From positions 1 through 64,000 of the forward strand of contig JAIGNY010000747.1 of assembly GCA_020152595.1 (NCBI GenBank): a stretch of DNA of 64,000 nucleotides, given 5' to 3'. The position numbers and the translations under genes are program-made. This document shows, piece by piece, positions 9,785-62,763 of the stretch. The notes beneath the pieces are model-generated. The model was not told where the DNA came from. It worked only from the letters and a program-made list of their open reading frames with translations, and made no database searches. Every line of letters starts with the position of its first letter. Positions within the stretch are counted from its first letter, which is position 1. The stretch is from Chiridota heheva. Taxonomy: Eukaryota > Echinodermata > Holothuroidea > Apodida > Chiridotidae.

Positions 9785-12700
9785 GTGCTGTACATTGCTA
9801 GTTGTAACTAGTCAAGTTAAGTGTAACTAGTTGTTGCTAGATGTGACTAGTCATTGCTAGGTGTGACTCATTATTGCTGGGTGTGACTAGTCATTGCAGG
9901 GTGTGACTAGTCATTGCTAGGTGTGACTAGTCATTCTTAGGTGTGACTAGTCGTTGCTAGGTGTGACTAGTCGTTGCTAGGTGTGATTAGTCATTGCTTG
10001 TGTGACTAGTCATTGCTAGGTGTGATAAGTCGTTGCTTGGTGTGACTAGTCGTTGCTAGGTGTGACTAGTCGCTGCTAGGTGTGACTAGTCGTTGCTAGG
10101 TGTCACTAGTCATTGCTAGGTGTGACTAGTCGTTTCTAGGTGTCACTAGTCATTGCTAGGTGTTACTAGTCATTGCTAGGTGTCACTAGTCATTGCTAGT
10201 TGTGACTATAATCATTGCTATGTATCACTAGACATTGCTAGTTGGGACTATAATCATTGCGAGGTGTCACTGATCGTTGGTAATTGTGACTATAATCATT
10301 GCTATGCATCACTAGTCATTGCTAGGTGTCATTAGTCGTTGCTAGATGTCACTAGTCATTGCTAGGTGTCACTAGCTGCTAGTTGTGACTATAATCATTG
10401 CTATGTATAACTAGTCATTGCTTGCTAGGTGTCACTAGTCATTGCTAGTTGGGACTATATTCATTGCTATGTATCACTAGTCATTGCTAGGTATCACTAG
10501 TCATTGCTAGGTGTGACTAGTCATTGCTAGGTATCACTTATCACTAGTCATTGCTAGGTATCACTTATCACTAGTCATTGCTAGGTATCACTAGTCATTG
10601 CTAGGTATAACTAGTCATTGCTAGGTATCACTAGTCATTGCTACGTATCACTAATCATTGCTAAGTCTCTAGTCATTGATAGGTATCACTAGTCATTGCT
10701 AAGTCTACAGTCATTGCAATGTATCACTAGTCATTGCTAGATGTGACTAATCATTGCTAGTTATAACTAATCATTGCCAAGTCTCTAGTCATTCCAAAGT
10801 CTCTAGTCATTGCTAAGTCTTTAGTCATTGCTAGGTATCACTAGTCATTGCTAGGTTTGTTTGTTTGATGAGGGCTTTATAGCACCAAAACAACGAGGGT
10901 CAAATTCACTAGTCATTGCTAGGTATAGTCATCGCTAGGTGTGACTAATCATTGCTAAGTATCACTAGTCATTGCTAAGTCTCAAGTCATTGCGAAGTCT
11001 CTAGTTATTGCTAGGTATCACTAGTCATTGCTAGGTTTGTTTGTTTGTTTGATGAGGGCTTAACGACAACACAACAACGAGGATCAAATTCACTAGTCAT
11101 TGCTAGGTATCACTAGTCATTGCTAGGTATCACTAGTCATTACTAGGTATAACTAGTCATTGCTAGGTATCACTAGTCATTGCTAGGTATCACTAATCAT
11201 TGCTTAGTCTCTAGTCATTGATAGGTATCACTAGTCATTGCTAAGTCTACAGTCATTGCAATGTATCACTAGTCATTGCTTGATATGACTAATCATTGCT
11301 AGTTATCACTAATCATTGCTCAGTCTGTAGTCATTCCAAAGTCTCTAGTCATTGCTAGGTATCACTAGTCATTGCTATGTATCACTAGTCATTGCTATGT
11401 ATCACTAGTCATTGTTATGTATCACTAGTCATTGCTAGGTTTGTTTGTTTGTTTGATGAAGGCTTAACGGCACCACAACAACAAGGATCAAATTCACTAG
11501 TCATTGCTAGGTATCACTAGTCATTGCTAGGTATCACTAGTCATTACTAGGTATAACTAGTCATTGCTAGGTATCACTAGTTATTGCTAGGTATCACTAG
11601 TCATTGCTTAGTCTCTAGTCATTGATAGGTATCACTAGTCATTGCTAAGTCTACAGTCATTGCAATGTATCACTAGTCACATTGCTTGATATGACTAATC
11701 ATTGCTAGTTATCACTAATCATTGCTCAGTCTCTAGTCATTCCAAAGTCTCTAGTCATTGCTAGGTATCACTAGTCATTGCTATGTATCACTAGTCATTG
11801 CTAGGTTTGTTTGTTTGTCTGTTTGATGAGGGCTTAACGGCACCACAACAACGAGGGTCAAATTCACTAGTCATTGCTAGGTATAGTCATTGCTAGGTGT
11901 GACTAATAATTGCTAGGTATCAGTAGTCATTGCTAAGTTTCTAGTCATTGCTAAGTCTCTAGTCATTGCTAGGTATCACTAGTCATTGCTAGGTTTGTTT
12001 GTTTGTTTGATGAGGGCTTCATGGACACCACAACAACGAGGGTCAAATTCACAAGTCATTGCTAGGTATAATCATCGCTAGGTGTGACTAATCATTGCTA
12101 AGTATCACTAGTCATTGCTAGGTATAGTCATCGCTAGGTGTGACTAATCATTGCTAAGTATCACTAGTCAATGCTAAGTCTCTAGTCATTGCTAAGTCTC
12201 TCGTCATTGTTAGGTATCACTAGTCATTGCTAGATTTGTTTGTTTGTTTGATGAGGGCTTAACGGCACCACAACGAGGGTCAAATTCACTAGTCATTGCT
12301 AGGTATCACTAGTCATTGCTAGGTATCACTAGTCATTACTAGGTATAACTAGTCATTGCTAGGTATCACTAGTTATTGCTAGGTATTACTAATCATTGCT
12401 TAGTCTCTAGTCATTGATAGGTATCACTAGTCATTGCTAAGTCTACAGTCATTGCAATGTATCACTAGTCACATTGCTTGATATGACTAATCATTGCTAG
12501 TTATCACTAATCATTGCTCAGTCTCTAGTCATTCCAAAGTCTCTAGTCATTGCTAGGTATCACTAGTCATTGCTATGTATCACTAGTCATTGCTAGGTTT
12601 GTTTGTTTGTCTGTTTGATGAGGGCTTAACGGCACCACAACAACGAGGGTCAAATTAACTAGTCATTGCTAGGTATAGTCATTGCTAGGTGTGACTAATA

Positions 12701-14298
12701 ATTGCTAGGTATCAGTAGTCATTGCTAAGTTTCTAGTCATTGCTAAGTCTCTAGTCATTGCTAGGTATCACTAGTCATTGCTAGGTTTGTTTGTTTGTTT
12801 GATGAGGGCTTCATGGCACCACAACAACGAGGGTCAAATTCACAAGTCATTGCTTGGTATAATCATCGCTAGGTGTGACTAATCATTGCTAAGTATCACT
12901 AGTCATTGCTAGGTATAGTCATCGCTAGGTGTGACTAATCATTGCTAAGTATCACTAGTCAATGCTAAGTCTCTAGTCATTGCTAAGTCTCTCGTCATTG
13001 TTAGGTATCACTAGTCATTGCTAGATTTGTTTGTTTGTTTGATGAGGGCTTAACGGCACCACAACGAGGGTCAAATTCACTAGTCATTGCTAGGTATCAC
13101 TAGTCATTGCTAGGTATCACTAGTCATTACTAGGTATAACTAGTCATTGCTAGGTATCACTAGTTATTGCTAGGTATCACTAGTCATTGCTTAGTCTCTA
13201 GTCATTGATAGGTATCACTAGTCATTGCTAAGTCTACAGTCATTGCAATGTATCACTAGTCACATTGCTTGATATGACTAATCATTGCTAGTTATCACTA
13301 ATCATTGCTCAGTCTCTAGTCATTCCAAAGTCTCTAGTCATTGCTAGGTATCACTAGTCATTGCTATGTATCACTAGTCATTGCTAGGTTTGTTTGATTG
13401 TCTGTTTGATGAGGGCTTAACGGCACCACAACAACGAGGGTCAAATTCACTAGTCATTGCTAGGTGTGACTAATAATTGCTAGGTATCAGTAGTCATTGC
13501 TAAGTTTCTAGTCATTGCTAAGTCTCTAGTGATTGCTAGGTATCACTAGTCATTGCTAGGTTTGTTTGTTTGTTTGATGAGGGCTTCATGGCACCACAAC
13601 AACGAGGGTCAAATTCACAAGTCATTGCTAGGTATAATCATCGCTAGGTGTGACTAATCATTGCTAAGTATCACTAGTCATTGCTAGGTATAGTCATCGC
13701 TAGGTGTGACTAATCATTGCTAAGTATCACTAGTCAATGCTAAGTCTCTAGTCATTGCTAAGTCTCTCGTCATTGTTAGGTATCACTAGTCATTGCTAGA
13801 TTTGTTTGTTTGTTTGATGAGGGCTTAACGGCACCACAACGAGGGTCAAATTCACTAGTCATTGTTAGGTATAGTTATTGCTAGGTGTGACTAATCATTG
13901 CTAGGTATCACTAGTCATTGCTAAGTCTCTAGCCATTGCTAAGTCTCTAGTCATCGCTACGTATCACGAGTCATTGATAAGTCTCTAGTCATTGCTAGGT
14001 GTTTTTAGTCATTGCTAGATGTCTGTAGTCATTGCTAGGTGTCTCTAGTCATTGATAGGTGTTTCTAGTAATTGCTAGATGGCTCTAGTCATTGCTAGGT
14101 GTCTCTAGTCATGGCTAAATCTCTAGTCATTGCTAGGTGTCTCTAGTCATTGCTAAGTTTCTAGTCATTGCTAGGTGTCTTTAGTCATGGCTAAATCTCT
14201 AGTCATTGCTAAGTGTCTTTAGTCTTTGCTAAGTTTCTAGTCATTGCTAGGTGTCTCTAGTCATTGCCAAGTCTCTAGAAATTGCTAGGTGTCACTGG
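9785..14298. repeat. Satellite B, 20 bp unit, with ~790 bp higher-order repeats
   Basis: The unit is roughly AGTCATTGCTAGGTATCACT. The left part (to about 10200) is simple GTGTGACT-type units; the right part (about 13940-14298) drifts to GTCTCTAGTCATTG types. Between 10855 and 13850 the array is interrupted by 12 copies of a ~50 bp block, TTTGTTTGTTTGATGAGGGC onward, identical in kind to the 3' end of the LINE at 18500. Three block variants recur in order with a spacing of about 776-792 bp (for example 11808, 12597, 13387), which defines a higher-order repeat. The array ends about 10 nt from the 5' splice site of the exon ending at 14309. Confidence 0.96.
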
Positions 14299-18180: not shown

Positions 18181-18499
18181 CTGCAAAGATGGGTTGTGGA
18201 AATAACAAGTGAATTCAAATGTTTTTACAGACTAGTTTTTGCAAATATAATCAATCACGATGTGTCAAATTGGCACAAGGGACATGCTACGATGCATAAA
18301 GTACCCGATCATCATTATAACTATTATTAATATAATTATTACTAATTCTATTTAGGTATTCTATGCGCAAAGTAGACTACAAAATACTAAAGATAACTAT
18401 TATAACAAAAGCAAATTCAAAGCATTAAAGAAATATCAAAGGCTGTAAAAAAACATGTAATGATAAGAATAATAACTTGGCAATAAATCATTAATGTTT

Positions 18500-21400
18500 G
18501 TTTGTTTGACGAGGGTTTATCGGCACTATGACAGCGAGGGTCAAATTGTGCCTGAGAGGTTAGATCATTCCAGAGGTAGAAAGGAAAGAAAACATGAGGA
18601 GATTGAGAGAAACATGAGAACTAAATGCCAGAAAGCTGGGATCGGGAGAGGTGGTGTATGGGTAGAAAAAACAAAGTAGAGAGAGGGGGTTGGAGAGGAG
18701 GACTACATATGGTTGATGAAGGAAGAAGATAATTTTATCTGGGGGGTTTTTCTTGAAGAGCTCGACTATTGAGTTGTGGGGAGCGAGGGAAGCTCTGGGA
18801 ATGTTGTACAGGGGACAAGCAAGAGAACATGATGGACTGTGAAGGTGCAATGGCAATTGTTGCAGAGGGGTTGGGGGGAGCCAATAAGGAAGTGGAAGAG
18901 AGTGAGGTGGGTGTGACCTATTCCAAGACGAGTAATGTAAACCTTGTCGACACAGGAGAGGTTGTGGATGGTGAGTTTGATCTGAATGGTGGGCTGGATG
19001 ACATGAAGTTTGTTATCAATTTGGTAGTCCCATGAGGTTTGCCAACGGTCACGAACAAGGGAGGTGATAAGTGGTTTGAAGTCAGGAAGGGTTTGGGGAA
19101 ATGGGGTAGGGGGAGGATGAGGGCAAGCTAAGCTGCTGCATCAGCCCTGTCATTGCCAGGGATGCCAACATGGCTGGGTATCCAGAAAAAAAGAATACTT
19201 TTCCTGCAGAGGGTGGGTGAAAGGAGTTTATGGAGGAGGTGGTGGGATGTGGGGTTATCTTACTTAAGATTGAGTAAAGAAGGACAGCCTTGGGGTTGGA
19301 GAAAATGGCAAAGTAGCTGAGCAGTGAGTACTCAATAAAGTTGAGGGCGTGGAGGATGGCCTTGGCCTTGGTCGAGAAGATGGACGAGTCGGGAAGCCTG
19401 CTACTGAGGGTGATGTCTTGGATGACAGCAACAGCAGCTGTCTTGTCGCCTTCGTTGGAGCCCTCAGTATAGATGGAGGTGTAGTTTGAGAGTTGGTCTT
19501 TGATTTGATTGTGGAGGTTGATGAAGAGGTTAGGGTGGGTTTGGGTTTTGTAATAAGTGGAGATGCCCAGGTGGATAGAAGGGAGAGGGTGGTCCAGGGA
19601 GGAAAAGTGGGCCAGGAGTAGGTGCCAAAAGTGGCGAGCTTGATGCCGAGATGGAAGAGGTCTGATTTGATGTGTAAGCTGAAGGAAGGGGATAGGGTTT
19701 TAGTCCTATCAAAGAATGTGGAGAAATTGGGGTACCTAATAAGATTGTAAACAGGGTTCTGGGTGTTGGTGAGGGCTTTAAAAGAATAGGAGAGGCGAAG
19801 CTTTTTACACCTTAACAGAAAGGGGGATTCGTTGGCTTCAACATGAAGGCTGGTGATTGGGGAGATCCTGCAGGCACCCAGACAAAGCCTGTGGGCTTCA
19901 TTTTGGATGGTGTTGATGTGGTTGAGGTAAGAGTTGTGAGCGACACAGTAGACAATATTACTGTAGTCGAGCTTGGCATGAATGGTGAGCCTGGGGGTAC
20001 GCGTCCCAATTGGTGTTGGAGAGGAGGCGGAGAAGGTTGAGGGAGTTGTTGCATTTCTGTTTCAGGTTGGTGATGTGTTGCTTGGTGGAGAGCTTGGGGT
20101 CTAGAGTTAAACCCAGGAACTTAGTGTGGTCAACTTTGGGGATGCAATTGCCATTGAGCACGAGGTTCAGGTTGGGGTGGAGGCTGTTGAAATGAAATAA
20201 GTGCATGCAGACTGTCTTGTCTTTGGATAATTTAAAACCGTTATTGTTTCAACAGTCTTGCAGCTGGATGAGGTTGAGTTGGAGCCTATTTTTGACAAGA
20301 GGAAAGCTAGGGGAGTAGAAGATGGTGAAGTCGTCCACGTAGAGGGCACGTTTGATGTTGGGGCCAAGGTTGTCCGCAATGTTGTTAATGCTCAGGTTGA
20401 AGAGAGTAGGGGGGGGGGGAGGCTGCTGCCTCAAACTTGGAGCTGTCTGGGTGAGAGGAAGTTTTGAACAAAGATGGGGAGGTGGCCTCTGAGGCCAATG
20501 GTGTAAAGTTTGTGGATAATGCAGTATTTCCAAGTAGTGTCAAAACCTTTCTCAAGGTCAAAAAAGATGGCAATAGATGTTCCTTTTTTTGTAAGGATTC
20601 CTGGATAGTGGTGTTGAGCGTATTTAAGTGGTCCAGGGTATTGCAATGTTTCCAAAAGCCGCTTTGGTGAGGGGATAGGTATGTTGGCCTCAAGGAACCA
20701 GTGTAGTCTCTGGTTAATGATCCTTTCCATAATTTTACAGAGACAGCAGGTGAGGGCGATGGGGCAGTAGCTGGAGGGGTCGGTACTGTCCTTTTCCAGT
20801 TTGGAGACGTGGGGTGATGATAGCTGTCCTCCAGATAGGGGGAAAGGAGTGTGGGGACCAAATGTGGTTGAGGATGGTGAGTAGGGTATTGGTGGCCTTG
20901 TTGGGGAGGTGTTTTAGGAACTGGTGAAGATGTTATCTGGGCCCTTGGAGGTGCAGCCAGCATCGTGGATGGCTTGGTTTAATTCAGAAAGGGTGAGAGG
21001 GGTGTTGTAGCTCTCGGTGTTGTCAGAGGGAAAGTGATACTCCGGGCTTCATTGCGAGCTTTTTTGGCTTTGAAAGCATTGAGGTAGTTGGCCGAGGATG
21101 AGATGTTGCTGAAAGAGGCGAGAGGTGGTTAATGATGTCCTTTTTTGCAGTGAGAAGGTCACCATTCCAGGAGAGATGGGAGACTTGCCCACCCTGCCGT
21201 GGAAGCTGTTAACCATTCTCCAAATCTTCTTAGTGTGGGTGTTGGTGGTGAGAGAAGAGATGAAGTTGTTCCAAGTGTTGGTTTTACTGTCCTTGATAGT
21301 GCACCTGGCTTTGGCATGGCTGATGCGAAAACGGGTTAGTTTTGAAGTTCCTGAGGGCCCTTTTTCTGTTCTTGAAGGCAGTTTTGCAGTTATCAGTGAG

Positions 21401-25950: not shown

Positions 25951-26303
25951 CCTAAATTTGGTAAATGCTTCTGAAATATTTCAGAGTATGGGTGATCAAA
26001 GTTTCAGATTATTTTTTAATTTATGCAAAATTTGGGATACAGCAGAGCAGGCTAATATCTTTGCGCTACCCTTCAAACTTTATTATTCAAATTCAAAGAT
26101 CAGAAACCCCGAAAGTCAAAATCCTAGAAAAACACAAAAGTAAAAAAACTTTTCAAAGAAGTTGGACCAAATTATCATTCACGATCAAGCTCAATTAAAC
26201 TGTGCGAGTTACATCATGTTTACTCACAAACACTGCCCATCAAGTTTCTCTTTAACTTACAACACCACACCATAATATCCCACATAACTTTTAAAATCAA
26301 ATT

Positions 26304-26575
26304 AATTTACCCCGCTAAGCGTAGCGGGGATATTTACGAGAGTTATACTTACCTTCCATGCTATAATATGCAATCTGGTCACACGACCTGATTCTAACGC
26401 ACTTCTAACCGAACCTAAAAAACGCAGTAACCAGCCAAGCCCTGACCTCCATAATACCTCTGTACCACCTCACTCAACATTCCACCGAGGCCTGAACGAG
26501 AGGGGAGGCGGGCGGGATGCATGGAAGGTAAGTATAACTCTCGTAAATATCCCCGCCACGCTTAGCGGGTAAATT
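26304..26575. mobile_element. Foldback/MITE-like element, ~57 bp TIRs
   Basis: The left arm opens AATTTACCCCGCTAAGCGTA and runs to CTTACCTTCCATGC (26361). Its near-perfect reverse complement (two differences) lies at 26519-26575, ending CGCTTAGCGGGTAAATT. The arm starts with its own small hairpin (CCCCGCTAAGCGTAGCGGGG). The interior (26361-26476) is nearly identical, inverted, to the subterminal sequence at 33901-34015. A TTA on both sides may be a target-site duplication; not secure. No ORF. Confidence 0.85.
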
Positions 26576-26665
26576 TACTTCAAGTTATACCTTACCTTCC
26601 ATGCTATAATATGCAATCAGATTGCAACCGAGGATAGGAAGGAAGGAGTTCAGATCGCCGCACAT

Positions 26666-26689
26666 TTTTTTTTTTTTTTTTTTTTTTAA
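26666..26689. repeat. Poly-T tract
   Basis: About 24 T in a row just inside the left end of the island; it could be a retroposed tail or a replication-slippage tract. Confidence 0.9.
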
Positions 26690-28799
26690 TGGCTGGTACG
26701 AAAACTCACACGAACCGAATCCCGTTTAAAGGACGAAATTCCTTCACCTCGGAAGGATGAAAGACCTCAAGAGTGGGAGGAACTAAAACATAGGAAACCA
26801 CGGCGAGGTACAGTCAAACCGAACAAGGCACCATTCGTTGACAGTAACGGAGGCAAACCTCGAAAGAACCTGAGCGTAAAGCCCAGAAAAACAAGCCAAC
26901 CGGAAGAGCGTTTGGACACAACTACAGCAAAGTGTCCACAAAAACGCCATTACAAGCCACACCGGATTCGTCCACGAGACAGAACGGCGAGAAACTACGA
27001 TTGGGAACGGCGTGTACCAATGAAAACGAATTGAAGAAATCCCGGACAAGGAAAAATTCGTTAGCGCATAACCGCGTAAGAGCTAAAGTTAGCGGGGAAC
27101 ACGAACGTCGAAAAGTGAGTCAGACCAAAAACAAAGAGAAAAACCGCATAAAAAGCGGTTTTCGAAACGCCGCACGAGAGATCCCGTGAAAAGAGGTTAT
27201 GCCCGAACCCGAGTGCATACGCGGCCGTTCTATGAACAGTTCAGACTACTTTAACAGAAAGCCACTGGATGATCTATCGGAGGAAAATGTCACATGACAC
27301 ACTACGAAGAGATCTCCCAGAACTCACCAGTGGTCGCAAGTCAAAGACCGTAGACCCCACCGGAAAAACCCTGGTGGATAGCTGCAAGGTATCCCAGAGC
27401 TCATGACGGAACTATGACAAAAATCGTCCCTGACCCGAGGCTCGTACGTGAAGCCTGCAAGGTCTCGAGCAGCCAAAGTTCGTCCTGCGCCTATCAACAG
27501 CGAAACTTGTCTAAGAAGTTGACTGGAGAAAGTGTTAACGTACTCACGTATAGTAACAACCTTGAAACCGCGGAGCCTACGGCTCACGGGCGCGAGAAAA
27601 GCGAATACCGTATGTCTGTACGGGCAGTTAAGTAACAGGCCGTAAAACCGCAAGGAAGCAGCTGTAAGGTGTTAAAGTATGGAAGGAACCATACGTGCCG
27701 TTGTTGGTAATAGCTACCCCAAACGTAAGGTTGTCTACCAAAAGGCCACCTATGGTCAAGAAAAATCTCCTTCATGGAGGTAATATTGACAAGTAGGGGT
27801 AACGCATTACTCACGTCAACCATATGAGTCATAAACCCCAACACTGGGGTAGAAATCACGAAAGAGGTGGCGTCCTGTGTATACTACACGGACCGTTAAA
27901 CACCCTGCACCACGGAGCGGAAAAGCGTGTGGCTACTGGGGACTTACGCCGTACAAAGTCACGCAACCCGTTAAATATAATACATCCGTTATGGGTCTAC
28001 AAAGGTGTCAGCATGACAAGTAAAAACCACGAGTCCACCGCCAACGATGTCGCTGTGCACCACGGAGCAAAAGCTCGTGGCTACGCGAGGGGACAACTGG
28101 TACTGGATGCGTGTCCCGAACGAACTAGCTATCAGTACCAAAGGACCGTCTAGGTCCACGATAGCGTGAACGTACTACACCTGTAACGTGAGTCGTTATC
28201 TCATTATACCTCTATTCACCACGGGGCCACCGGTAAGTGGCGGCGTGGGGAAGAAGTACACAGTGCACGCGTTCCGTTGAGAATAGGTAAAAATATATAA
28301 ACTGAGGCCGTAAGAAATACGGAGGAGTTCACGTGCCACGCAAGCTATACGAGTCGTAAACTGAGTTTGTTCCATCAGAGCTCTGAAACCGGTAGCTGCG
28401 TGGGGAAGAGGGACAACCGTCGTACTCAGTACGTGTCCCGGTAAGAGAAACGGCCGCGGAACGCAGTAGTTCATGGCTACTGGTCCTCTACCACACAGCC
28501 GGCGCGCTGGTATGGCCGTTAACTCCGTTTGTATAAAATCACGGAGCCGCGGCCGGGCGGCTCTGGCGTGGGGACTGCCGTCGACGCTAAAAACGCCCCA
28601 GCAAAAAAGCGACCGCGGAACACTGCAACACGCGGCTAACGGTCGCAATATCCCGAAGTTCCGATACCGGGTTTATAAATGCGTTGTCGTAAAACGCGTT
28701 AATATCTGTAGAATGTGAGCGAGGGTCTCGTTCGACGCAAGAATCACATTCAGGGTATGCCTCCCGTAAAGAAGGAAATCTTATCACCCGAGCGCTAGG

Positions 28800-31190
28800 C
28801 CTCGAAAACCCGAGCAAGCGCTAACACGCGACGCATCCTGGGGCGTGGCGTACCGACAAAGCGGGGACTCGTCCTCGTGTCCATGAACTGGTGAAAAACT
28901 ATGCGGAACCGTGGCGTTCAAGCGAAAATCTCACCAAGTCAGCTCACACGGACGTGGGGATCTCGAAACTAACGGGTGTGGCGTCGTTATGCGTTACCTT
29001 GCTGTAGAACTAAGCAGTACTACAGACCCAAAGCGTCATCCCATGCCCCCCGGAGCCGCCAAGTTGTGTTACGGACCCGTGCGGGCCGTAAAACAAGCCG
29101 TGGGGCCGTATGGAACCGATGCGAGCCGTCACGGACCCTAATGGACCCGTGCAAGGAATCCAATGGCTCTACAACTAGCCGTAAAAAGGGGACTAACTCA
29201 CGTAAGACCCGTGAGGGCACGCCTCTTGTTGGCCGACGGTCCCATCAGCGGAACCGAAGACCACAGCGGTGTACACGGGTTTGAACAAGTCGATAACACC
29301 AAAGCGCAACCTAAGAAGCGTTTACATGCGACGCACCGCCCAGGACAGTCAAGGCGCGTAACGCACCGACACTAGGGCCCTGCCCGTCGTGCCGATGATA
29401 TAGCGCAAAACATCGCGGAACTGTGGCGTTCAACGCGGAAAATCCTACAGAGGCAGTTCACGGCCGTGGGACAGCGTAGCTATGACCAAGCAGCTTCCTA
29501 GCTAGCGAACTCAACCGGGGTTCATCGTGCAGTGTGCGTTATCCGTTGCAAAAACTCGAAGTCGTACAGGCCCGTGCGGTCTAGAGAAGCGTTTGCACGC
29601 TATGCAAAAGCGGGACCTCTGAGGTGCGTAGCGTACCCGGCCTTACGGAGGCCTGTCCTCCGTGCCTCACGATACTGGTGAAAGTAATTGCGGAAATGTA
29701 ACGTTCAACGCGGATAATCGTATAAATGGTGTTCACATGATCGTGGAACTGCGTAGCTAATGGCCACGGAACCATGAATAGAATAGCTCTCGCGGCGCTA
29801 TACTACTTGTGAAGATTATCACTTGTCACCTGGCCACATAGCTCGTAGCTAGCGGGTGCATATCCGGGTAAATCAATGCGGTGTGCGATATCCCGTTACA
29901 AAACTACGGAGCCATACACATCCGAACACCGGAGCCCGCGCTCTCGGTCGCACCTTGAAAAATACCGGTGGCGGTGGAGTCTGTGCTCCGACCACGCCGC
30001 TGGAACCCAATCGCTGCAAAGAGTACCACGAATGGACTCGCAGCATAATCTCTGCACGCGTAAGCGTGAGATGGATGTGACCGGGCGTAAAGCAAAGCGT
30101 TATCACGCTATGCCGGGTCATCAAGGGTGTGTAGAGCATCGGCGCCGAGGACCTGTCCTCCATGTCCATGATACTGGTGAAAATAATTACGGAACGGTAA
30201 TGTTCAAGCGCAGACAATCTTAATTGCGTTCACGAGTCGTGGAACTGCGTAGCTAATGGCTACGGGACCAAGAAGAAAATAGCTGTCCTGATGCTATACT
30301 TCTTGTAAAGAAAGTCATCTGTCACCTGACCACGTGGCGTAGTAGCTAGTGGGCGTATAACGGAGTGAACCGTACAGTGTACGTTATCCCATTAGAGATA
30401 AGTTCCGCTCACTGGAGCCGTCCAATGGAAGCGAAAGGACCCGTGAACGCGGACCGTGGACTCGTATGGAACCGTGCGGACCCGTAAATACGGGCGCGGA
30501 ACCGTCCAATGGAACCGTGCGGACCCGTAAAACACGGACCGTGGAACCGTGCGGACCCGTAAACATGGGCCGTGGAACCGTATAACTGTCGTAGCCGTTG
30601 GCTACAGGACCAAAAGAAAAATAGCTGTCTCAATGCTATACTTCCGGATGAACGTGCGGTGTACGTCTTTCAGAGCGCTCCGCTAGGAGTGGCGGCGGCC
30701 CCGCCTCCTGGCTTTGGGCCTGGGTGGCGGTGGGAGACGAAGAGGGCCTCTCAGACCGTCGCTTCTCCACTTTCTCCGCCGCTCTTTGAAAGTACGGTCG
30801 CGGTGGAGTCTGTGCTCCGACCACGCCGCTAGATCCCAATCGCTGCAAAGAGTACGGGATTTGACTCGCAGCATAATCTGCCGCAGCGTAACGCGTGAGA
30901 TGGATGTCACGGGCGTAATTTAAAGAAAGCGTTTGCACGCCACGCATCACGAGACATCCTGGGTGTGTAAAAACATCGACACTCGGGACCTGTCCTTCAT
31001 GTCCATGATACTGGTGAAAATAAATACGGAACTTGTAACGTTCAAGCGTAGACAGTCTTAATTGCGTTCACACGAGCCGTGGAACTGCGTAGCTAATGGC
31101 TACAGGACCAAGAAGAAAAATAACTGTCAATGCTATACTTCTTGTCAAGAATGTCACCTGTCACCTGACCACGTAGCTAGTGGGCGTATA
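28800..31190. repeat. Diverged long repeat module inside the island, at least five copies
   Basis: Each copy starts near an AGCGTTTGCACGC-like motif (28810, 29320, 29587, 30093, 30928), has CCTGTCC..CCATG..GATACTGGTGAAA, then GGAAC..TAACGTTCAA and GTGGAACTGCGTAGCTAATG. A second block, GTGGAGTCTGTGCTCCGACC to CGCAGCATAATCT, occurs at about 29974 and 30802, 828 bp apart. Copies at 30.1 and 30.9 kb are close to each other; those at 28.8-29.3 kb are much more diverged. Weaker traces continue left to about 27.6 kb. Confidence 0.85.
30390..30590. repeat. GGAACCGT-type short repeats
   Basis: A run of GTGCGGACCCGTAAA and GGAACCGT motifs; it looks like a relative, perhaps the seed, of the 51 bp satellite that begins at about 31205. 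Confidence 0.75.
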
Positions 31191-31204
31191 AGCGGATTAA
31201 ACCG

Positions 31205-32300
31205 TGCGATGTCGTGAACCCGTTAAATACGGACCCGTGTAAACACGGGCGCGGAACCGTCAATGGAACCGTCCGCCCGTAACAACGGGCGCGGAACCCG
31301 TATGGAACCGTCCGCCCCCATAACAACGGGCAGCGGAACCGTCCGCCCGTAACAACAGGCAGCGGAACCGTATGGATCACGGAACCGTCCAATGGAACCG
31401 TCCGCCCGTAACAACGGGCAGCGGAACCGTATGGACCGCGGAACCGTCCGCCCGTAACAACGGGCGCGGAACCGTATGGATCCCGAACCGTATGGATCCG
31501 TCCCGAACCGCACAATGCCGCACATAGGGCTGCGGAAGCGTCAGGGATGGTCCAAGCGGAACCGTATGGAACCGGCCGCCCGTAACAACGGGCGCGGAAC
31601 CCGTCTGGGGACCGTCCAATGGAACCGTCCGCCCGTAACGGGCGGCGGGACCGTATGGAACCGTCCAATGGAACCGTCCGCCCGTAACAGCGGGCGCGGA
31701 ACCGTATGGGACCGTCAATGGAACCGTCCGCCCGTAACAACGGGCGCGGAACCGTATGGAACTGTCCAATGGAACCGTCCGCCCGTAACAACGGGCGCGG
31801 AACCGTATGGAACCGTCCAATGGAACCGCCCGCCCGTAACGGGGCGCGGAACCGTATGGAACCGTCAATGGAACCGTCCGCCCGTAACAACGGGCAGCGG
31901 AACCGTATGGAACCGTCCAATGGAACCGTTCGCCCGTAACAACGGGCAGCGGAACCGTATGGAACCGTCCAATGGAACCGTTAAGCCCGTAACAACGGGC
32001 AGCGGAACCGTATGGAACCGTCCAATGGAACGTTAAGCCCGTAACAACGGGCAGCGGAACCGTATGGAACCGTCCAATGGAACCGTTAAGCCCGTAACAA
32101 CGGGCGCGGAACCGTATGGAACCGTCCAATGGAACCGTTAAGCCCCGTAACAACGGGCCGCGGAACCGTATGGAACCGTCCAATGGAACCGTTAAGCCCG
32201 TAACAACGGGCGCGGAACCTTATGGACTCACGGAACCGTCCAATGGAACCGTTAGCCCGTAACTTTTTACGGGCAGCGGAACCGTATGGACTCCCGGAAC
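31205..32300. repeat. 51-52 bp GC-rich satellite with a hairpin in each unit
   Basis: Unit: GGAACCGTATGGAACCGTCC, AATGGAACCGTCCG, CCCGTAACAACGGGCGC. GGGCGCGG recurs at 31742 and 31793 (51 bp). Each unit has the inverted repeat CCCGT-AACA-ACGGG. From about 31981 rightward TCCG changes to TTAAG in the units. Open frames on both strands are a consequence of the repeat. Confidence 0.95.
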
Positions 32301-32700
32301 TTTATGGAACTGTCCCTGAACTCACAACAACCGGCGCTCAGCGCGTTACAAAGGGTTGTGGAGTCGACGAGGACTGTCCAACCGTTTGGAACGTGTTTAC
32401 AACTTAGGCGGCGTTCGTTAACGTCCTAAGAGGTCTCTCTCTCTCTCTCTCACTTACCTTACGGAACCGTCCAATGGAACCGTTAAGCCCGTAACTTTTT
32501 ACGGGCGCGGAACCGTATGGACTCCCGGAACCTTATGGAACTGTCCTGAACTCACAACAACCGGCGCTCAGCGCGTTACAAGGGTTGTGGAGTCGACAGG
32601 GACTGTCCAATGGAACCGTTAGGAACGTGTTTACAACTTAGGCGGCGTTCGTTAACGCCCTAAGAGGATATCTCTCTCTCTCTTACCGTTACGCTCTAGG
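32232..32700. repeat. ~228 bp tandem duplication with (CT)n
   Basis: ACGGAACCGTCCAATGGAAC through CCGGCGCTCAGCGCGTTACA to GGCGGCGTTCGTTAACG occurs at 32232-32430 and again at 32459-32660, each followed by CTAAGAG and a (CT)n run. Confidence 0.9.
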
Positions 32701-32744
32701 TATAGCGCCTCTAAGAGCGTAACCTTCTCAGTGAATCTCTTTTA

Positions 32745-33015
32745 TATATCTGAAAAGAGAAGAACATATATCCATCGTACATACACAAATACGGCAAAGT
32801 AAGTATGAACTTACGGACACGCTAAAGAGAGCGAGGCCTAGCAGTCTAAACAGAACACCAAAACTCTCTTAAACAGAAAAAATTTTACTGAAAAATAAAT
32901 TTCTTAAGAGAAGAACGTAAGTCCAAGCGTACAAACCTAAACACGGCAAAGTAACTATGAACTTACGGACACGCTAAAGAGAGCGAGGCATAGCATTCTA
33001 AACAGAACAACAACA
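32745..33015. repeat. ~180 bp tandem duplication
   Basis: Both copies contain AAGAGAAGAAC, then ACGGCAAAGTAA, ATGAACTTACGGACACGCTA and AAGAGAGCGAGGC, followed by CTAAACAGAACA. Confidence 0.9.
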
Positions 33016-33900
33016 CTTGCTTTAACAGAAAAAATTTAAAACCAAAAAATTTTCTATCTGAAAAACTTTAGAAACCGAAAAACGCATCCAACGTAATGAC
33101 TTTACTAGCGCCGGGGTAGCGTGGGAAACACCGACCACTGTGTACTTGAGGTCTGTAAAGATAAAAGGAAAGATTATTTTCCTGTAATTAGGTCGTCGGA
33201 GAGACCCACCCACGGTCTCTCCGACACCCCAAGTTCAATCCTGAAAATTAAATATTTAATCTCCAAACTGTGTGAGAAAAATAAAAATATTCATATGCTC
33301 TTAACGTGAAAACGAAAATAAGCTCGCTAGTAACAACTGTAGCTCCTAGAGTTGTTACAGGGCGACCCACACTTACCCAGCGGTGACTAAGACCCAATGC
33401 GCATGCACCAAAATCGAAAAAGGAAATTGGCCTAATGCATACGAGAAGGTGTACTGAAATATCCTAACGTGTTAAACACTATACAGAGTATAACGCTAGG
33501 GTCACCTCGAGGCGGGTGGGGCTAAGGGAGAAAAGACTAATTCCCGGGCGAGAGGTCCCTAGACAGGCACAACCTGTGCTCTAGGACCTAAAACACCCAC
33601 CACGAGTAGGGCGCTCTCGTAACTAGCCACTCGCTATGCGAATGGAGACAAAAACCCGCTATCCTAAGTGTAGGCTACACGGGTAAAGTCGTGTAGGTCG
33701 GCCGAAGAAATCTCGGACCCATGGCTATCTCACCCTTCTCTCGGAAGACTTGAAAAGGCGAGCCAGATGAGAGCGGGCAGCGTAAAACCCTTCAGGTAGA
33801 AGCTGCGAAGAGAAAAAGAGTTAGAAAGGTTAATTAAAAATAAAATAAAAGTGACCAGTTTTCAGCGATGTTGTGAAACAAACAAGCGCTGAAAAAGAGT
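33016..33900. other. Right part of the island, no recognised feature
   Basis: GC-moderate, CpG-containing sequence inside the island. A small inverted repeat (GGTCGTCGGAGAGACC / GGTCTCTCCGAC) is at about 33190-33224. No ORF of interest. Confidence 0.5.
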
Positions 33901-34315
33901 GAGTGGTACAGAGGTATTATGGAGGTCAGGGCTTGGCTGGTTACTGCGTTTTTAGGTTCGGTTAGAAGTGCGTTAGAATCAGGTCGTGTGACCAGATTGC
34001 ATATTATAGCATGGAAGGTAAGGTATAACTTGAAGTAAATACAAGTTATTTATCTTACATCTAGCTGTCAGTTATTGCTTAATTGTAACATAAAGTAACT
34101 CCTATTCTTCTTTTCAGCAAGACATATGCAGGATGCTGTTAAGGAGAAAGGGTAAAGAATTGGACCTCACATTCTATGTGGTAGGCAGAATGATATCATT
34201 CCACACCTGTTTCATTGAGCTCAAACTTTCAAATTTACTTGAGCTACAGGTCAAAGCTCATTACTGAGAACAAACATGCTATCAAATGAGTGTAACATCT
34301 GATGTTTTTGTATAC

Positions 34316-34918: not shown

Positions 34919-35280
34919 CTAAAGATTAAAGGCATAAGAATCAACATCATGTAATCTCTTGCAGACGTATTCACCTACTCTTACTTTTTCCTATGACTTC
35001 TGTCATTCCAACTAAGCCAGGCTTTTTAATCAACCTGGAAGTGTTTTTTGTCGGGGCTAAGAAATCTTACATTCCAACCATATCTTATCCCAGTAGTTTT
35101 ACCCCTCGAAAGAAAAACAAGTCTTCCAAATAAAAAACAACAACATTTGATATTGATAATTTAACATTGAAAAGTATAATTTGAACACCTTAATACACTT
35201 AAGAGGATGATTTCATCCTAGTAACTTGCTATGAATCCATCTAGAGCAATATCTAAAATTTAATCCATGTTCAGAAACAG
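34919..35280. other. Intron 13-14, right part, no feature seen
   Basis: About 360 bp of AT-rich intron before the LINE 3' tail. Confidence 0.5.
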
Positions 35281-37040
35281 TTTGTTTGTTTGTTTAATGA
35301 GGGTTTAATGGCATCACAACAGCGAGTTTCAAATTGTGCCTGAGAGGTCAGATCATTCCAGAGGTAGGAAGGAAAGAAAACAAGGGGAGATTGAGAGAAA
35401 CACACAAACTAAATGCCAGAAAGCTGGGATCGAGAGTGGAGATGCATGGGTGAAAAAAACAAAGTAAAGAGGGGGGGGTGGGAAAGGAGGACTAAATATG
35501 GTTGTAGAGGAAAGCATGATGAAGAAAGAAGATAATTTTATCCAGAGGGCTATTTTCGACAAGAAGAAAGCTTGTTCAGTTATTAAACAATCCATGCTCT
35601 CTTCAGTGTCATACGTGTGTGTTTAGATGGTGGACTGTTTGTTGATTGGTTGCTTGTTGGTTTGATGTTTGTTAGCTAGGCTGGCTTGAGTTTGATATTT
35701 GATAGCATTAGAGGTGTTGGGGTAGGGGACGGCGGGGGTCTTAGAGAAGGAAGGAACGTTGGGGAGAGAAGTGGTGGTGGATGTGGTTTGGGTAATGGGT
35801 GTGGTTGGGTTGTTGGCAATGGTGATGGGCTTACGACTGGGTAAGAAGAGCCAGGTGGTCAGTTTGGGCATGTGAGTCAGTTTTAGTTGTGTTAAGGGGG
35901 CAGTATTGGTATTAGAGGAGACTGCGCTCGAGTAGAAAGGTTTGGTGTGGAGGGAAGCAAGGAATTGCTTCCTGGCCTCTGGGTAAGTGATGTTGAGATT
36001 AAGGGTTTTCAGTTTGGATATCTGCTTTTCCTGCAGCCAGGTGGGGCAGTATTTTGAGGAGGGATGGTTGGCTGGGTGAGCACTGTCACAATTGTGGGAT
36101 GTTGGTGCAGGAGGCGCTGTCATGGTCCAGGGCTCCACAGTTGCCACAGTGTGCTTGGCTGCAGCAGGAGTTTTTTCCATGGCCATACCTCTGGCACTTA
36201 TGACAACGGAGGGAGTTGGGGATGTAAGGAGCGACTGGGATTCTCAGGTAGCCGGCAGTGATGTGGGAGGGTAGTGTTGGTGTGGCAAAAGTCAAGAAGA
36301 TGGTATTGGTGGGTGTTTCGGCACTGTCTTTCTTGAGGACGAGATGACGGGCTTCAGTAACATGATGGTTGGCAAGTTCCTCAACAAGGTCTTTATCGGT
36401 CAAGTAGGCAAGGTCTCGAGTTCTAATGATGCCTTTGCTGGAGTTCAAGGAACAGTGGGGGATGACTGTAACGTCAATACCAGTATTAGCTAGGGTTTTG
36501 GTAGTGCATGAGGAGGGTGGTGGCTTAAGTGTCCCTAGTGCAGTGCACCAGGAGATCGCCGGATCTGAGGGTAGAGACCTTGGGAGGGTACCGACAAGGC
36601 CATGGAGCGCCTTGTGTATGAGAAAAGGGGAACTCTTTTCAAACTTTCTGGTTTATTGGTGGCCTGTATGAATAGAATTTTGGAGACTGGGCTAAACAAT
36701 GGTCCATGGAGGTTGCAGGTGGGTCACGGGGAGGGGAGGGACGGTCAAGGCAGAAGCATTTCGTCCTGATGGAAAGAAAAAAACCAAGTGCCAAGAGACC
36801 CAAGGCAACTAGAAAAAAAATCGCAGAACTACTATAGGAGAACCGCTGTACAGGTATCACTAAGGTGTGAAAATTTGGTCACAACGGGAAGGGGAAAAAA
36901 AAGAAAAAAGAATGGTCTCATCGAAAGCAGATACTAATCCACAGAGAGAATCGGAAAACGAAGATACAAAACAAACATTTAGGTAGTAAAGTGCAAGGTA
37001 AAGTGTATCAGAATGAAGAGTTTGAGAGAAAAGAATAGAA
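35281..37040 (-). mobile_element. LINE copy 2, internally deleted (ORF1 joined to 3' end)
   Basis: The left 270 bp (35281-35550) match the 3' end of LINE copies 1 and 5, including the TTTGTTTGTTTG tail. The rest (35620-36860) is an ORF1 (gag-like) with a CCHC knuckle run: CHKCQRYGHGKNSC and CGNCGALDHDSASC, then after a frame switch YPEARKQFLASL. ORF2 (EN, RT, RNase H) is absent between them; a ~70 bp stretch I cannot place lies at the joint. Upstream of 36860 may be its 5' UTR. Same orientation as the gene. Confidence 0.8.
35623..36448 (-). pseudogene. LINE ORF1 (zinc-knuckle gag-like) remnant
   Basis: Two overlapping frames on the minus strand. The 5' one (120 aa) ends with two CCHC-type knuckles; the 3' one (187 aa) begins within the knuckles and carries the threonine/proline-rich tail. 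The frame break near 36100-36180 makes it non-functional as it stands. ORF1 proteins of this kind bind element RNA. Confidence 0.8.
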
Positions 37041-47785: not shown

Positions 47786-48285
47786 ATGTTTACAAATCAG
47801 AAAACTAAAAGTCAGAAAGCTGAGATCAAGAGAAGAGGTGCATGGGTGAAAAAACAAAGTAGAGAGAGGGGAGTGAAAGGGGAGGACTAAATATGATTGT
47901 AGAGGGAAGCATGATGAAGCAAGGAGATCAATTTTATTCGGAGGGTTTTCCTGAAAAAACTCGGCAATTGACTTGTGGGGAGCGAGGGAAGCTCTGGGAA
48001 GGTTGTACAGGGGACAAGCAAGGAGAACATGGTGGACTGTGAGAGAACAATGGCAAATGTTGCAGAGGGGTCTGGGGGAGCCAACAAGGAGGTGGGAGTG
48101 AGTGAGGTGAGTGTGACCTATTCTAAAATGGGTAATGTGAACGTTGTCGACATGAGAGAAATTGTTGGTGGGTTTGATCGGAATGGTGGGCTGGATGACG
48201 TGGAGTTTGTTATCAATTTGGGAGTTCCATGAGGTTTGCCAGCGGTCACAAACAAGGGAAGCGATAAGCGGTTTGATATCAGAAA
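47786..48285 (-). mobile_element. LINE 3' region fragment (copy 4)
   Basis: Matches the 3' third of LINE copy 1 (18620-19090): AAAGTCAGAAAGCTGAGATC on the plus strand, and on the minus strand THFRIGHTHLTHSHLLVGSP and LTVHHVLLACPLYNLPRASL, the C-terminal part after RNase H. It lacks the terminal ~100 bp and joins satellite F at its right. Confidence 0.9.
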
Positions 48286-48481
48286 GCCTTAAAGGTGAGG
48301 AACAACAGTAAACTTTAAAGGTGAGGAACAACAGTAAGCCTTAAAAGTGAGGAACAATAGTGAAGCCGAAGGAACAACAGTAAGCCTTAAAGGTAAGGAA
48401 CAACAGTAAGCCCTCAAGGTAAGGAACAACAGTAAGCCATAAAGGTACGGAACAGTAAGCCTTAAAGGTGCGAAGCAACAG

Positions 48482-48965
48482 TTTGTTTGTTTGATGAGGT
48501 CTTAACGGCACCATGACAACGAGGGTCAAATTGTGCCTGAGAGGTCAGATCATATTAGAGGTAGGAAGGAAAGAAAACAGGGGGAGAATGAGAGAAATTC
48601 AAGAACAAAAGTCAGAAAGCTGTAATCGAAAGAGGAGGTGCATAGGTGAAACAAAAACAAAGTAGAGAGGGGGTGGAAGAGGAGAGTTGAATATGGTTGT
48701 AGAGGGAAGTATGATGAAGGAAGGAGATAATTCTATCCGGAGGATTCTTCTGGAAGAACTCAGCAATTGAGTTGAGGGGAGCAAGAGAAGCTCTGGGAAG
48801 GTTGTACAGGGGCAAGCAAGGAGAACGTGATGGATAGTGAGGATGCAGTGGCAACTGTTACAGAGGGGTTGGGGTAATCCAAGGAGGTGGGAGTGAGTGA
48901 GGTGGGTGTGACCGATTCTAAGACGGGTAATATGAATGTTGTCGATACGAGAGAGGTTGTTGATG
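48482..48965 (-). mobile_element. LINE 3' end fragment inside satellite F (copy 4b)
   Basis: From TTTGTTTGTTTGATGAGGTC through GTGCCTGAGAGGTCAGATC to the RIGHTHLTHSHLL-coding part; satellite F units lie on both sides. Confidence 0.9.
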
Positions 48966-49111
48966 AAGCAACAGTAAACCTTAAAGGTGAGGAACAACAG
49001 TAAGCCTTAAGGTGAGGAACAACAGTAAGCCTTAATGGTGAGGAACAACAGTAAACCTTAAAGGTGAGGAACAACAATAAGCCTTAAAGGTGAGGAACAA
49101 CAGTAAACCTT

Positions 49112-49340
49112 ATGTTTGTTTGTTTAATGAGGGCTTAACGGCAACACAACAACAAGGGTCAAATTGTGCCTGAGAGGTTAGATCATTCTAGAGGTAGAAA
49201 GGAAAGAAAACAGGGGAGAATGAGAGAAATACAAGAAGTAAAAGTCAGAAAGCTTGGATCGAGAGAGGAGGTGCATGGGTGAAACAAAAATAAAGTAGAG
49301 AGAAGGGGGGTCGAAGTGGAGGACTAAATATGGTTGTAAA
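49112..49340 (-). mobile_element. LINE 3' end fragment inside satellite F (copy 4c)
   Basis: TGTTTGTTTGTTTAATGAGG through GATCATTCTAGAGGTAG to CTAAATATGGTTGTAAAGG, where it passes into satellite units; again the terminal part of the LINE in the same orientation. Confidence 0.9.
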
Positions 49341-49620
49341 GGTGAGGAACAACAGTAAACCTTAAAGGTGAGGAACAACAGTAAGCCTTAAGGTGAGAAA
49401 CAACAGTAAGCCTTAAAGGTGAGGAACAAGAGTAAGCCTTAAGGTGAGGAACAACAGTAAGCCTTAAGGTGAGGAACAACAGTAAGCCTTAAAGGTGAGG
49501 AACAACAGTAAGCCTTAAAGGTGAGGAACAGTAAGCCTTAAAAGTGAACAACAGTAAGCCTTAAAGGTGAGGAACAACAGTAAGCCCTAAGGTGAGGAAC
49601 ATCAGTAAGCCTTAAAGGTA

Positions 49621-51630: not shown

Positions 51631-51689
51631 TCAATATTTTCTTTATCAACAACAAAGTCAGCAAACTTATACACTTAAACATAAACATA

Positions 51690-54600
51690 AGAACATGACA
51701 GAATACAATGCTATTGGAAGCAGTAAGAACATGACAGAATACAATGCTATTGGAAGCAGTAAGAACATGACAGAATACAATGCTATTGGAAAAAGCAGTA
51801 AGAACATGACAGAATACCATGCTATAGGAAGCAGTAAGAACATGACAGAATACAATACTATTGGAAGCAGTAAGAACATGACAGAATACAATGCTATTGA
51901 AGCAGTAACAACATGACAGAATACAATGCTGTTGAAAGCAGTAAGAACATGACAGGATACAATGCTGTTGAAGCATGAACATGAATACAATACTATTGGA
52001 AGCAGTAAGAACATGACAGAATACAATGCTATTGTAAAAAACAGTACAAAGAACATGACAGAATACAATACTATTGGAAGCAGTAAGAACATGACAGAAT
52101 ACAATGCTATTGGAAAGCAGTAAAAACATGACAGAATACAATGCTATTGGAAGCAGTAAGAACATGACAGAATACAATGCTATTATTAAAAGCAGTAAGA
52201 ACATGACAGAATACAGAATACAATGCTATTGCAGTAAGAACATAAGAACATAAGAACATGACAGAATACAATGCTATTGGAAGCAGTAAGAACATGACAG
52301 AATACAATGCTATTGGAAGCAGTGAAGAACATGACAGAATACAATGCTATTGGAAGCAGTAAGAACATGACAGAATACAATGCTATTGGAAGCAGTAAGA
52401 ACATGACAGAATACAATGCTATTGGAAGCAGAACATAAGAACATGACAGAATACAATGCTATTGGAAGCAGTAAGAACATGACAGAATACAATGCTATTG
52501 GAAGCAGTAAAAACATGACAGAATACAATGCATGACAGAATACAATGCTATTGGAAGAACATGACAGTAAGAACATGACAGGATACAATGCTATTAGAAG
52601 CAGTAAGAACATGACAGAATACAATGCTATTGGAAGCAGTAAAACATGAAGCAGTAAGAACATGACAGAATACAATGTAATAACTATTGGAAGCATTGGT
52701 AAGAACATGACAGAATACAATGCTATTGAAGCAGTAAGAACATGACAGAATACAATGCTATTGGAAGCAGTAAGAACATGACATAAGAACATGACAGAAT
52801 ACAATGCTATAGGAAGCAGTAAGAATCATGACAGAATACAATGCTATTATTGACAGAAGCAGTAAGAACATGACAGAATACAATGCTATTGGAAGCAGTG
52901 AAGAACATGACAGAATACAAATGCTATTGGAAGCAGTAAGAACATGACAGAATACAATGGTATTGAAGCAGTAAGAACATGACTTAATACAATGCTATTA
53001 GGAAGCAGTAAGAACATGACAGAATACAATGCTATTGAAAGCAGTAAGAACATGACAGAATACAATGCTATTGGAAGCAGTAAGAACATGACAGAATACA
53101 ATGCTATTGGAAGCAGTAAGAACATGACAGAATACAATGCTGAAAGCAGTAAGAACATGAAGAAGTAAGAACATGACAGAATACAATGCTGTTGAAAGCA
53201 GTAAGAACATGACAGAATACAATGCTATTGGAAGCAGTGAGAACATGACAGAATACAATACTATTGAAGCAGTAAGAACATGACAGAATACAATGCTATT
53301 GGAAGCAGTAAGAACATGACAGAATACAATACAACTATTGGAAGCAGAAAGAACATGACAGAATACAATGCTATTAAAAGCAGTAAGAACATGACAGAAT
53401 ACAATGCTATTGGAAGCAGTAAGAACATGACAGAATACAATACTATTGGAAGCAGTAAGAACATGACAGAATACAATGCTATTGGAAGCAGTTAAAACAT
53501 GACAGAATACAATGCTATAGGAAGCAGTAAGAACATGACAGAATACAATGCTGTTGAAAGCAGTAATAACATGACAGAATACAATGCTATTGGAAGCAGT
53601 GAGGACATGACAGAATACAATACTATTGGAAGCAGTAAGAACATGACAGAATACAATGCTATTGGAAGCAGTGAAAACATGACAGAATACAATACTATTG
53701 GAAGCAGTAAGAACATGACAGAATACAATACTATTGGAAGCAGTAAGAACATGACAGAATACAATGCTATTGGAAGCAGTTAAAACATGACAGAATACAA
53801 TGCTATAGGAAGCAGTAAGAACATGACAGAATACAATGCTGTTGAAAGCAGTAATAACATGACAGAATACAATGCTATTGGAAGCAGTAAGAACATGACA
53901 GAATACAATGCTATTGAAAGCAGTACAACATGACAGAATACAATACTATTGAAGCAGTAAGAGCATGACAGAATACAATGCTATTGGAAGCAGTAAGAAC
54001 ATGACAGAATACAATACTAGAGGAAGCAGTAAGAACATGACAGAATACAATGCTATTGAAGCAGTAAGAACATGACAGAATACAATACTATTGGAAGCAG
54101 TAAGAACATGACAGAATACAATGCTATTGAAGCAGTAAGAACATGACAGAATACAATGGTATTGAAGCAGCAAGAACATGACTTAATACAATGCTATAGG
54201 AAGCAGTAAGAACATGACAGAATACAATGCTGTTGAAAGCAGTAAGAACATGACAGAATACAATGCTATTGGAAGCAGTAAGAACATGACAGAATACAAT
54301 GCTATTGGAAGCAGTAAGAACATGACAGAATACAATGCTATAGGAAGAAGTAAGAACATGACAGAATACAATGCTGTTGAAAGCAGTAAGAACATGACAG
54401 AATACAATGCTATTGGAAGCAGTGAGAACATGACAGAATACAATACTATTGAAGCAGTAAGAGCATGACAGAATACAATGCTATTGGAAGCAGTAAGAAC
54501 ATGACAGAATACAATACTATTGAAGCAGTAAGAACATGACAGAATACAATGCTATTGGAAGCAGTAAGAACATGACAGAATACAATACTATTGGAAGCAG

Positions 54601-62480: not shown

Positions 62481-62493
62481 CTCTGAGGCCGAT
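62481..62493. repeat. Target-site duplication of the SINE, left copy
   Basis: CTCTGAGGCCGAT, repeated exactly at 62764-62776. LINE copy 1 has a single version of this site (CTCTGAGGCCAAT at about 20485). Confidence 0.95.
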
Positions 62494-62763
62494 ATCTACC
62501 TACTGTGGTGTGGCCCGGTTATCATACTTGTCTACAGACCCGAGGCCCCAGGTTCAATCCTGGGGTGGGTAGTACGCCAGTGCACCACAACTGGTTATCA
62601 AGGCCGTGGGCGTTGACTTGGTTATCGATGTTATGTCTGTCGTCGTCATTACCTTGTGTTCTTATCCGGATTACGTATTAAAGTTTCGTGATAGCATTTG
62701 TACTATCATAACCGAATAGGCGACGACCCGTCATTGTAATTGTGTGTTCAACTCTCTCTCTCT
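62494..62763 (+). mobile_element. tRNA-derived SINE, 270 bp, with (CT)n tail
   Basis: The head (62496-62572, 77 nt) folds like a tRNA: CTACCTA pairs with TGGGTAG as acceptor stem, and CCAGGTTCAATCCTGG is a T arm with B box. The A box (TGGCCCGGTTA) is weaker. A ~180 bp body follows, then a (CT)n tail. A 13 bp target-site duplication flanks it, and LINE copy 1 shows the empty site, so both ends are secure. Confidence 0.93.

What the first reader, a model, noticed from the sequence alone, without database searches (positions are those of the whole stretch)
26575..34041. GC-rich, repeat-built island with terminal inverted repeats and no transposase
The sequence shows a sharp compositional jump at both ends, inverted repeats at the two termini (26577-26620 against 33990-34034), and an interior made of diverged repeats rich in CpG, with no credible protein. 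Large non-autonomous DNA transposons usually keep traces of a transposase or a deleted parent; here the filling looks like self-made repeat. I infer a non-autonomous TIR element whose inside has grown by repeat expansion, or a captured foreign segment. It lies inside a DYNC2H1 intron, so it is transcribed.
Basis: partly seen in the sequence, partly recalled or inferred. Interest (0 to 1): 0.75.

Follow-up and report, generated by a model that had tools for sequence, protein, structure and literature searches.

The report
Young noncoding inverted-repeat jumping element
A 7.5-kilobase jumping-DNA element in which no protein was recognised, filled partly with its own repeats, sits inside a dynein gene next to a tiny relative that shares its ends; it is real but belongs to a familiar kind of genomic parasite.

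Summary
A 7,468-bp block (26573-34040) is bounded by a 46/46 perfect inverted repeat; CpG observed/expected is 1.27 inside and 0.32 in the compared flanks. No Pfam family reached its cut-off in 36 of 36 ORFs of at least 70 aa, and no Rfam family reached its gathering score and no tRNA was found. About 134 bp of it equal the element's right end, inverted, at 97.8%, so the ends belong to a mobile family. Tandem duplications of different ages (73-97% identity) cover 46% of the element; 26690-28400 resembles no other part. Between internal copies CpG is not hypermutable (23% transitions vs 27% at GpC), unlike in one neighbouring LINE pair (55% vs 26%). Best reading: a recently inserted non-autonomous TIR DNA transposon of undetermined superfamily, moved in trans, with an interior partly grown by duplication. 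Target-site duplication, transposase, copy number and host remain unknown, because no genome is held for this window.

The parts
26300..26580 (.). MITE-like palindromic small relative (arms 26300-26361 and 26519-26580; its arms overlap the large element's first bases by a few bp), opposite orientation to the large element
   Evidence: 62-nt arms, 92% complementary; 26341-26475 matches 33897-34030 inverted at 97.8%; in the aligned shared part the differences are single-base indels, and the outermost bases differ
26573..26618 (+). left terminal inverted repeat of the large element
   Evidence: 46/46 complementary to 33995-34040
26665..26688 (+). run of 24 T close to the left end
   Evidence: sequence; outside the element matches only an A-run at 51.6 kb
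26690..28400 (+). CpG-rich interior with no similarity to other parts of the element
   Evidence: best local scores do not exceed the largest of 20 shuffles against any other part
28840..28958 (+). diverged repeat unit U1
   Evidence: 73% identical to 29353-29470; five-copy alignment
29353..29470 (+). diverged repeat unit U2
29587..29898 (+). diverged repeat unit B1 (contains U3)
   Evidence: 79% identical to 30095-30394
29942..30583 (+). first copy of a ~650-bp duplication (contains U4)
   Evidence: 85% identical, gaps left out, to 30773-31432; 89% over the part before the array
30773..31432 (+). second copy of the ~650-bp duplication (contains U5; runs into the array)
31200..32300 (+). ~52-bp tandem array (regular from 31566); units carry a GCCCGTAACAACGGGC-type hairpin
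   Evidence: 31566-32226: 12.8 copies, 91% matches; perfect stems of 6 or more in 31200-32300: 17 observed vs 3.9 +/- 1.9 in shuffles; units printed
32227..32683 (+). 231-bp tandem duplication, the most alike pair
   Evidence: 96.8% identity
32755..33037 (+). ~151-bp period duplication
   Evidence: 87.8% identity
33038..33896 (+). CpG-rich interior without detected internal repeats
   Evidence: tested as part of 32700-33890
33897..34030 (+). right subterminal segment shared with the small relative
33995..34040 (-). right terminal inverted repeat

Best explanation
A recently inserted, non-autonomous DNA transposon with 46-bp terminal inverted repeats. Its ends are presumably cut and joined in trans by a transposase from an autonomous relative elsewhere in the genome; the small copy beside it is a second, internally different member with a related end. 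No gene was recognised in the interior. A little under half of it arose by successive tandem duplications inside the element lineage, presumably before this copy jumped; the rest is of unknown origin. Shown: the ends, the shared 134 bp, the repeats, the lack of recognised genes, the absence of CpG-specific decay between internal copies. Inferred: movement in trans, order of events, recent insertion.
For: Perfect 46/46 inverted ends, the right one coinciding with a sharp fall in CpG. Related end plus 134 bp shared with an adjacent palindromic copy. Repeat pairs with a range of identities, 73-97%, all less alike than the two TIRs. CpG o/e 1.27 in a 0.32 neighbourhood. No Pfam, Rfam or tRNA recognised.
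Against: No clean target-site duplication: of 14 end positions tried only AT and TA gave exact flanking repeats of 2 bp or more, and TA is self-complementary and so comes free with an extended inverted repeat; a 4-bp reading is AATT left and AATA right, one mismatch (by eye). On the left the composition jump is shared with the small copy. No second full-length copy or transposase was seen, and no genome could be searched. The small relative's outermost ~30 bp differ from the large element's end.
Confidence: 0.78

Rival explanations
1. A CpG-rich segment of other origin (host CpG island, satellite, or foreign DNA) was captured between transposon ends, and the repeats formed afterwards or came with it.
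For: 26690-28400 shows no relation to the repeats, nor does 33040-33890; a piece at about 30667-30797 looks by eye like a different GC-rich insert.
Against: High CpG runs through the whole element. Exact-pattern scans of viral and prokaryote contigs and blastn against phages and plasmids gave no match, but these could not show host DNA.
Confidence: 0.3
2. Two or more unrelated MITE insertions happen to flank a CpG-rich island.
For: A separate MITE-like copy does lie at the left boundary, and 134 bp of the right end equal part of it.
Against: After the complete small copy there is still a perfect left end facing a perfect right end, and the left end continues into sequence different from the MITE. 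CpG falls to 0 at the right boundary.
Confidence: 0.08
3. The interior specifies a long structured noncoding RNA on which selection acts.
For: Mean folding z by region (plus/minus strand): array -3.19/-2.05 (20 windows), right part -1.78/-1.64 (17), left part -0.66/-0.62 (61), against -0.34/-0.34 in 97 flank windows. Perfect hairpins exceed shuffles in the array (17 vs 3.9) and in 32690-33890 (6 vs 1.7).
Against: The largest part (left, 61 of 98 windows) is near the flank level; both strands fold about equally well overall; hairpins also exceed shuffles in one flank (40 vs 27.8). The covariation term is unfavourable in the 3-copy (+1.35; 4 of 66 pairs with a two-sided change) and 5-copy (+0.8; 3 of 33) alignments. 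No Rfam family reached its gathering score. The better-folding right part was not tested for covariation.
Confidence: 0.07
4. A decayed autonomous element: a former transposase gene eroded beyond recognition.
For: Size would fit; no coding relative is available for comparison.
Against: No period-3 signal and no Pfam family over its cut-off (36 of 36 ORFs), while CpG has not decayed and the TIRs are identical, so there has been little time for erosion in this copy.
Confidence: 0.07

Closest known systems
Tetris / DAIBAM pair of Drosophila virilis (PMC4079207; abstract and section list seen)
   Same: A large apparently non-autonomous DNA transposon sharing its terminal portions with a small MITE, both described as likely mobilised by the same autonomous element; internal tandem repeats, there about 220 bp.
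   Different: Tetris carries the repeats within foldback-type TIRs; here the TIRs are 46 bp and the repeats are interior and direct. Relation by sequence was not tested.
Ordinary MITEs and deletion-derivative non-autonomous TIR elements (recalled)
   Same: TIRs, no recognised coding capacity, shared ends between long and short members.
   Different: Interior about 7.4 kb long, CpG-rich, with no recognisable remnant of a parent gene.
Galileo (P superfamily, Drosophila; starts of abstracts seen in the search listing)
   Same: TIR element with internal repetition and structural variation.
   Different: Galileo has long, internally repetitive TIRs and a transposase-coding sequence; neither is seen here.

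Membership tests
Non-autonomous TIR DNA transposon | terminal inverted repeats | tested here: met
   46/46
Non-autonomous TIR DNA transposon | target-site duplication | tested here: inconclusive
   only AT or TA among 14 end positions, TA being automatic with a palindromic border; 4-bp AATT/AATA has one mismatch (by eye)
Non-autonomous TIR DNA transposon | no own transposase | tested here: met
   no Pfam family over its cut-off in 36 of 36 ORFs of at least 70 aa; no period 3. Shorter exons were not tested
Non-autonomous TIR DNA transposon | several copies sharing the ends | tested here: inconclusive
   one small relative in the window; no genome to search
Non-autonomous TIR DNA transposon | autonomous partner with the same ends | not testable with these tools
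   no genome held for this window
Foldback element (Tetris/Galileo type) | long TIRs that contain the tandem repeats | tested here: not met
   the inverted match between the element's two ends is 46 bp; repeats are interior and direct
Known superfamily (Tc1/mariner, hAT, PIF/Harbinger, etc.) | transposase homology or diagnostic TIR plus TSD | not testable with these tools
   no transposase recognised; TSD unresolved

The most novel reading that the evidence does not exclude
The element arrived recently by horizontal transfer from, or lives in, a compartment without CpG methylation. Its internal repeats diverged by up to 27% without CpG-specific decay, while LINE copies compared in the same window do show it. 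It would be a large mobile carrier of unmethylated, island-like, self-amplifying noncoding DNA that sets a 7-kb CpG island inside a host gene.
Probability: 0.22. Interest if true: 0.55.

Novelty: new member of a known kind. Interest (0 to 1): 0.35.

Why it matters
A complete large member and a small member of one TIR family lie side by side, so the family's ends are defined and can be searched in the host genome. The lack of CpG-specific decay between old internal repeats is a usable clue to where the element evolved (another host, or an unmethylated compartment). If it stays unmethylated, such an element would place a 7-kb CpG island in a ciliary dynein gene.

Tried and rejected
Structured-RNA idea: folding, hairpin counts and covariation tried. 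The array and the right part (32.7-33.9 kb) do fold better than shuffles, the left part hardly; covariation was not favourable where tested, so the idea is kept only as a weak rival. Coding idea: period-3 and Pfam negative; six weak Pfam matches (Abi_C E 0.039, MINT_RAM7 0.05, DUF3561 0.051, T2SSppdC 0.063, LEA_2 0.1, pKID 0.42) are all under their cut-offs. Stop codons in 26690-31200: 50 to 77 per frame against 57.6 or 67.2 expected, three frames below and one above by 10 or more; not taken as coding without period 3. Rfam: one match at E 3.8, 19.6 bits against a gathering score of 80, taken as chance. Exact patterns in viral and prokaryote contigs and blastn against phages, plasmids and, for 401 bases only, E. 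coli: no match. TIR letters in papers: 0 papers. Literature searches by words: from titles and abstract starts no paper on this element was noticed; one search returned none; Tetris was the closest parallel. A retro-inserted origin suggested by the T24 was considered only by eye; no flanking duplication was noticed.

Pairs A and B12 still share 30095-30364, so the five pairs are not fully independent. The LINE control is three blocks of one pair (L1/L4). Over all 11 LINE blocks, which overlap, my sum is 53 of 103 CpG and 56 of 185 GpC sites with the transition (51% vs 30%), a smaller contrast. The ts/tv difference (1.11 vs 1.79, p=0.03) is weak after several tests and is not relied on. Clustering of differences within pairs was tested as a sign of constraint: scattered p-values of 0.03-0.9, no clear result.

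Full report
What is there. The window holds a 7,468-bp block, 26573-34040, whose two ends are a perfect 46-bp inverted repeat. GC is 0.516 inside and 0.381 in the compared flanks; CpG observed/expected is 1.27 and 0.32. The right boundary is sharp. The left boundary is masked because a second CpG-rich element touches it.

The neighbour. Arms 26300-26361 and 26519-26580 are 92% complementary: a palindromic, MITE-like copy of about 270 bp. Its segment 26341-26475 matches 33897-34030 of the large element in inverted orientation at 97.8%. In the alignment the differences within the shared part are single-base indels. The outermost ~30 bp of the small copy differ from the end of the large one, and its other half is not alike. 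The two are therefore relatives in opposite orientation, not parts of one palindrome. This is the best evidence in the window that the ends belong to a mobile family.

Target site. Trying 14 possible end positions of the large element gave only AT and TA as exact flanking direct repeats of 2 bp or more. TA is its own complement and comes free with any longer inverted repeat, so it proves nothing. Read by eye, the start TACTTC gives AATT on the left and AATA on the right. The small copy gives AATT on both sides if one extra C on its left is allowed for; the script printed AATTT for ends at 26309 and 26571. The duplication is left open.

Interior. Between 28840 and about 33040 it holds direct repeats covering 3,429 of the element's 7,468 bases. 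They are a unit present five times in diverged form, a ~650-bp duplication (85% overall, 89% before the array), a ~52-bp array (12.8 copies, 91% matches), a 231-bp duplication (96.8%) and a ~151-bp one (87.8%). In one search (20 shuffles) 26690-28400 matched no other part above the largest shuffle score, and neither did 32700-33890. So the statement that the interior is self-made repeat is a little under half right.

No genes recognised. In all 36 stop-to-stop ORFs of at least 70 aa listed for 26300-34100, no Pfam family reached its cut-off. Period-3 power was at most 1.9 times the mean in 21 blocks. No Rfam match reached its gathering score and ARAGORN found no tRNA. Folding is better than shuffles in the array (mean z -3.19 plus, -2.05 minus) and in the right part (-1.78, -1.64), but little so in the left part (-0.66, -0.62), with flanks at -0.34. 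Alignments of three and five internal copies gave no favourable covariation term; the right part was not tested that way.

Where the repeats diverged. In five pairs of internal copies (1,208 compared sites; two pairs share 270 bp) 27 of 116 CpG sites differ by the deamination-type transition (23%), against 26 of 96 GpC control sites (27%), p=0.53. In three blocks of one pair of LINE copies in the same window the figures are 22 of 40 (55%) and 24 of 92 (26%), p=0.0026; element against LINE at CpG, p=0.0003. Summed over all 11 overlapping LINE blocks the contrast is smaller, 53 of 103 and 56 of 185. CpG was thus not decaying preferentially while these internal copies diverged, whereas it was in old insertions of the surrounding gene. 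This fits a recent arrival of an element that evolved in an unmethylated setting: another host, or the same host if its methylation is confined to gene bodies, as in many invertebrates (recalled). The host is unknown, so the two cannot be separated. The pairs were chosen after the repeats had been seen, and the counts are small.

Setting. Exon-like ORFs on the minus strand, joined into two queries, match human cytoplasmic dynein 2 heavy chain (E 5.7e-93; 2.2e-93), in colinear order from 46.4 kb to 8.7 kb. The element lies between exon ORFs at 24.2-24.8 kb and 41.8 kb. About 430 residues of the protein fall in that gap, so exons not located here should lie there and the exact intron is not delimited. 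That the element is transcribed as part of the pre-mRNA is inference.

Relatives. No exact match to four short patterns of the element and its neighbour was found in IMG/VR viral contigs, nor to two of them in GTDB prokaryote contigs. Blastn found nothing in phage records and plasmids or, for 26300-26700, in E. coli genomes. These collections are not made of animal genomes, so this says little. The closest printed parallel seen is Tetris with its MITE DAIBAM in Drosophila virilis (PMC4079207; abstract and section list): a large non-autonomous element sharing its ends with a MITE and carrying internal tandem repeats, but there within foldback-type TIRs.

Verdict. A real, apparently young, non-autonomous TIR element with a partly self-amplified noncoding interior: a family not matched in what could be searched, but of a known kind. 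The undecayed CpG between old internal repeats is the one feature that could become more interesting once the host genome can be searched.

Noticed in passing
window 18494-20685, 35273-35548, 47800-49342, 60900-62950: Blocks of a repeated LINE-like element (77-89% alike); an ORF nearby (36089-36652, minus) has a CCHC zinc-knuckle-like stretch, by eye like an I/Nimb-type ORF1 (recalled, not tested).
   Followed up: partly
window 1-7501 and 51688-59070: Two long tandem arrays (67-68-bp and 36-bp units) of 7 kb or more each, with strong strand skew.
   Followed up: no
window 9793-14296: A 4.5-kb array of a degenerate 20-bp unit.
   Followed up: no
window 26690-33890: Excess of A over T on the plus strand through the element (A 0.285, T 0.191 in 26690-31200; A 0.365, T 0.209 in 32690-33890) with C and G about equal.
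   Followed up: partly
window 30667-30797: Very GC-rich stretch between the two copies of the ~650-bp duplication, with short inverted ends (CTTTCAGAGCG / CGCTCTTTGAAAG, by eye); perhaps a small nested insertion.
   Followed up: no
window 26665-26688: T24 run next to the left end; on the opposite strand it reads as a poly(A).
   Followed up: no
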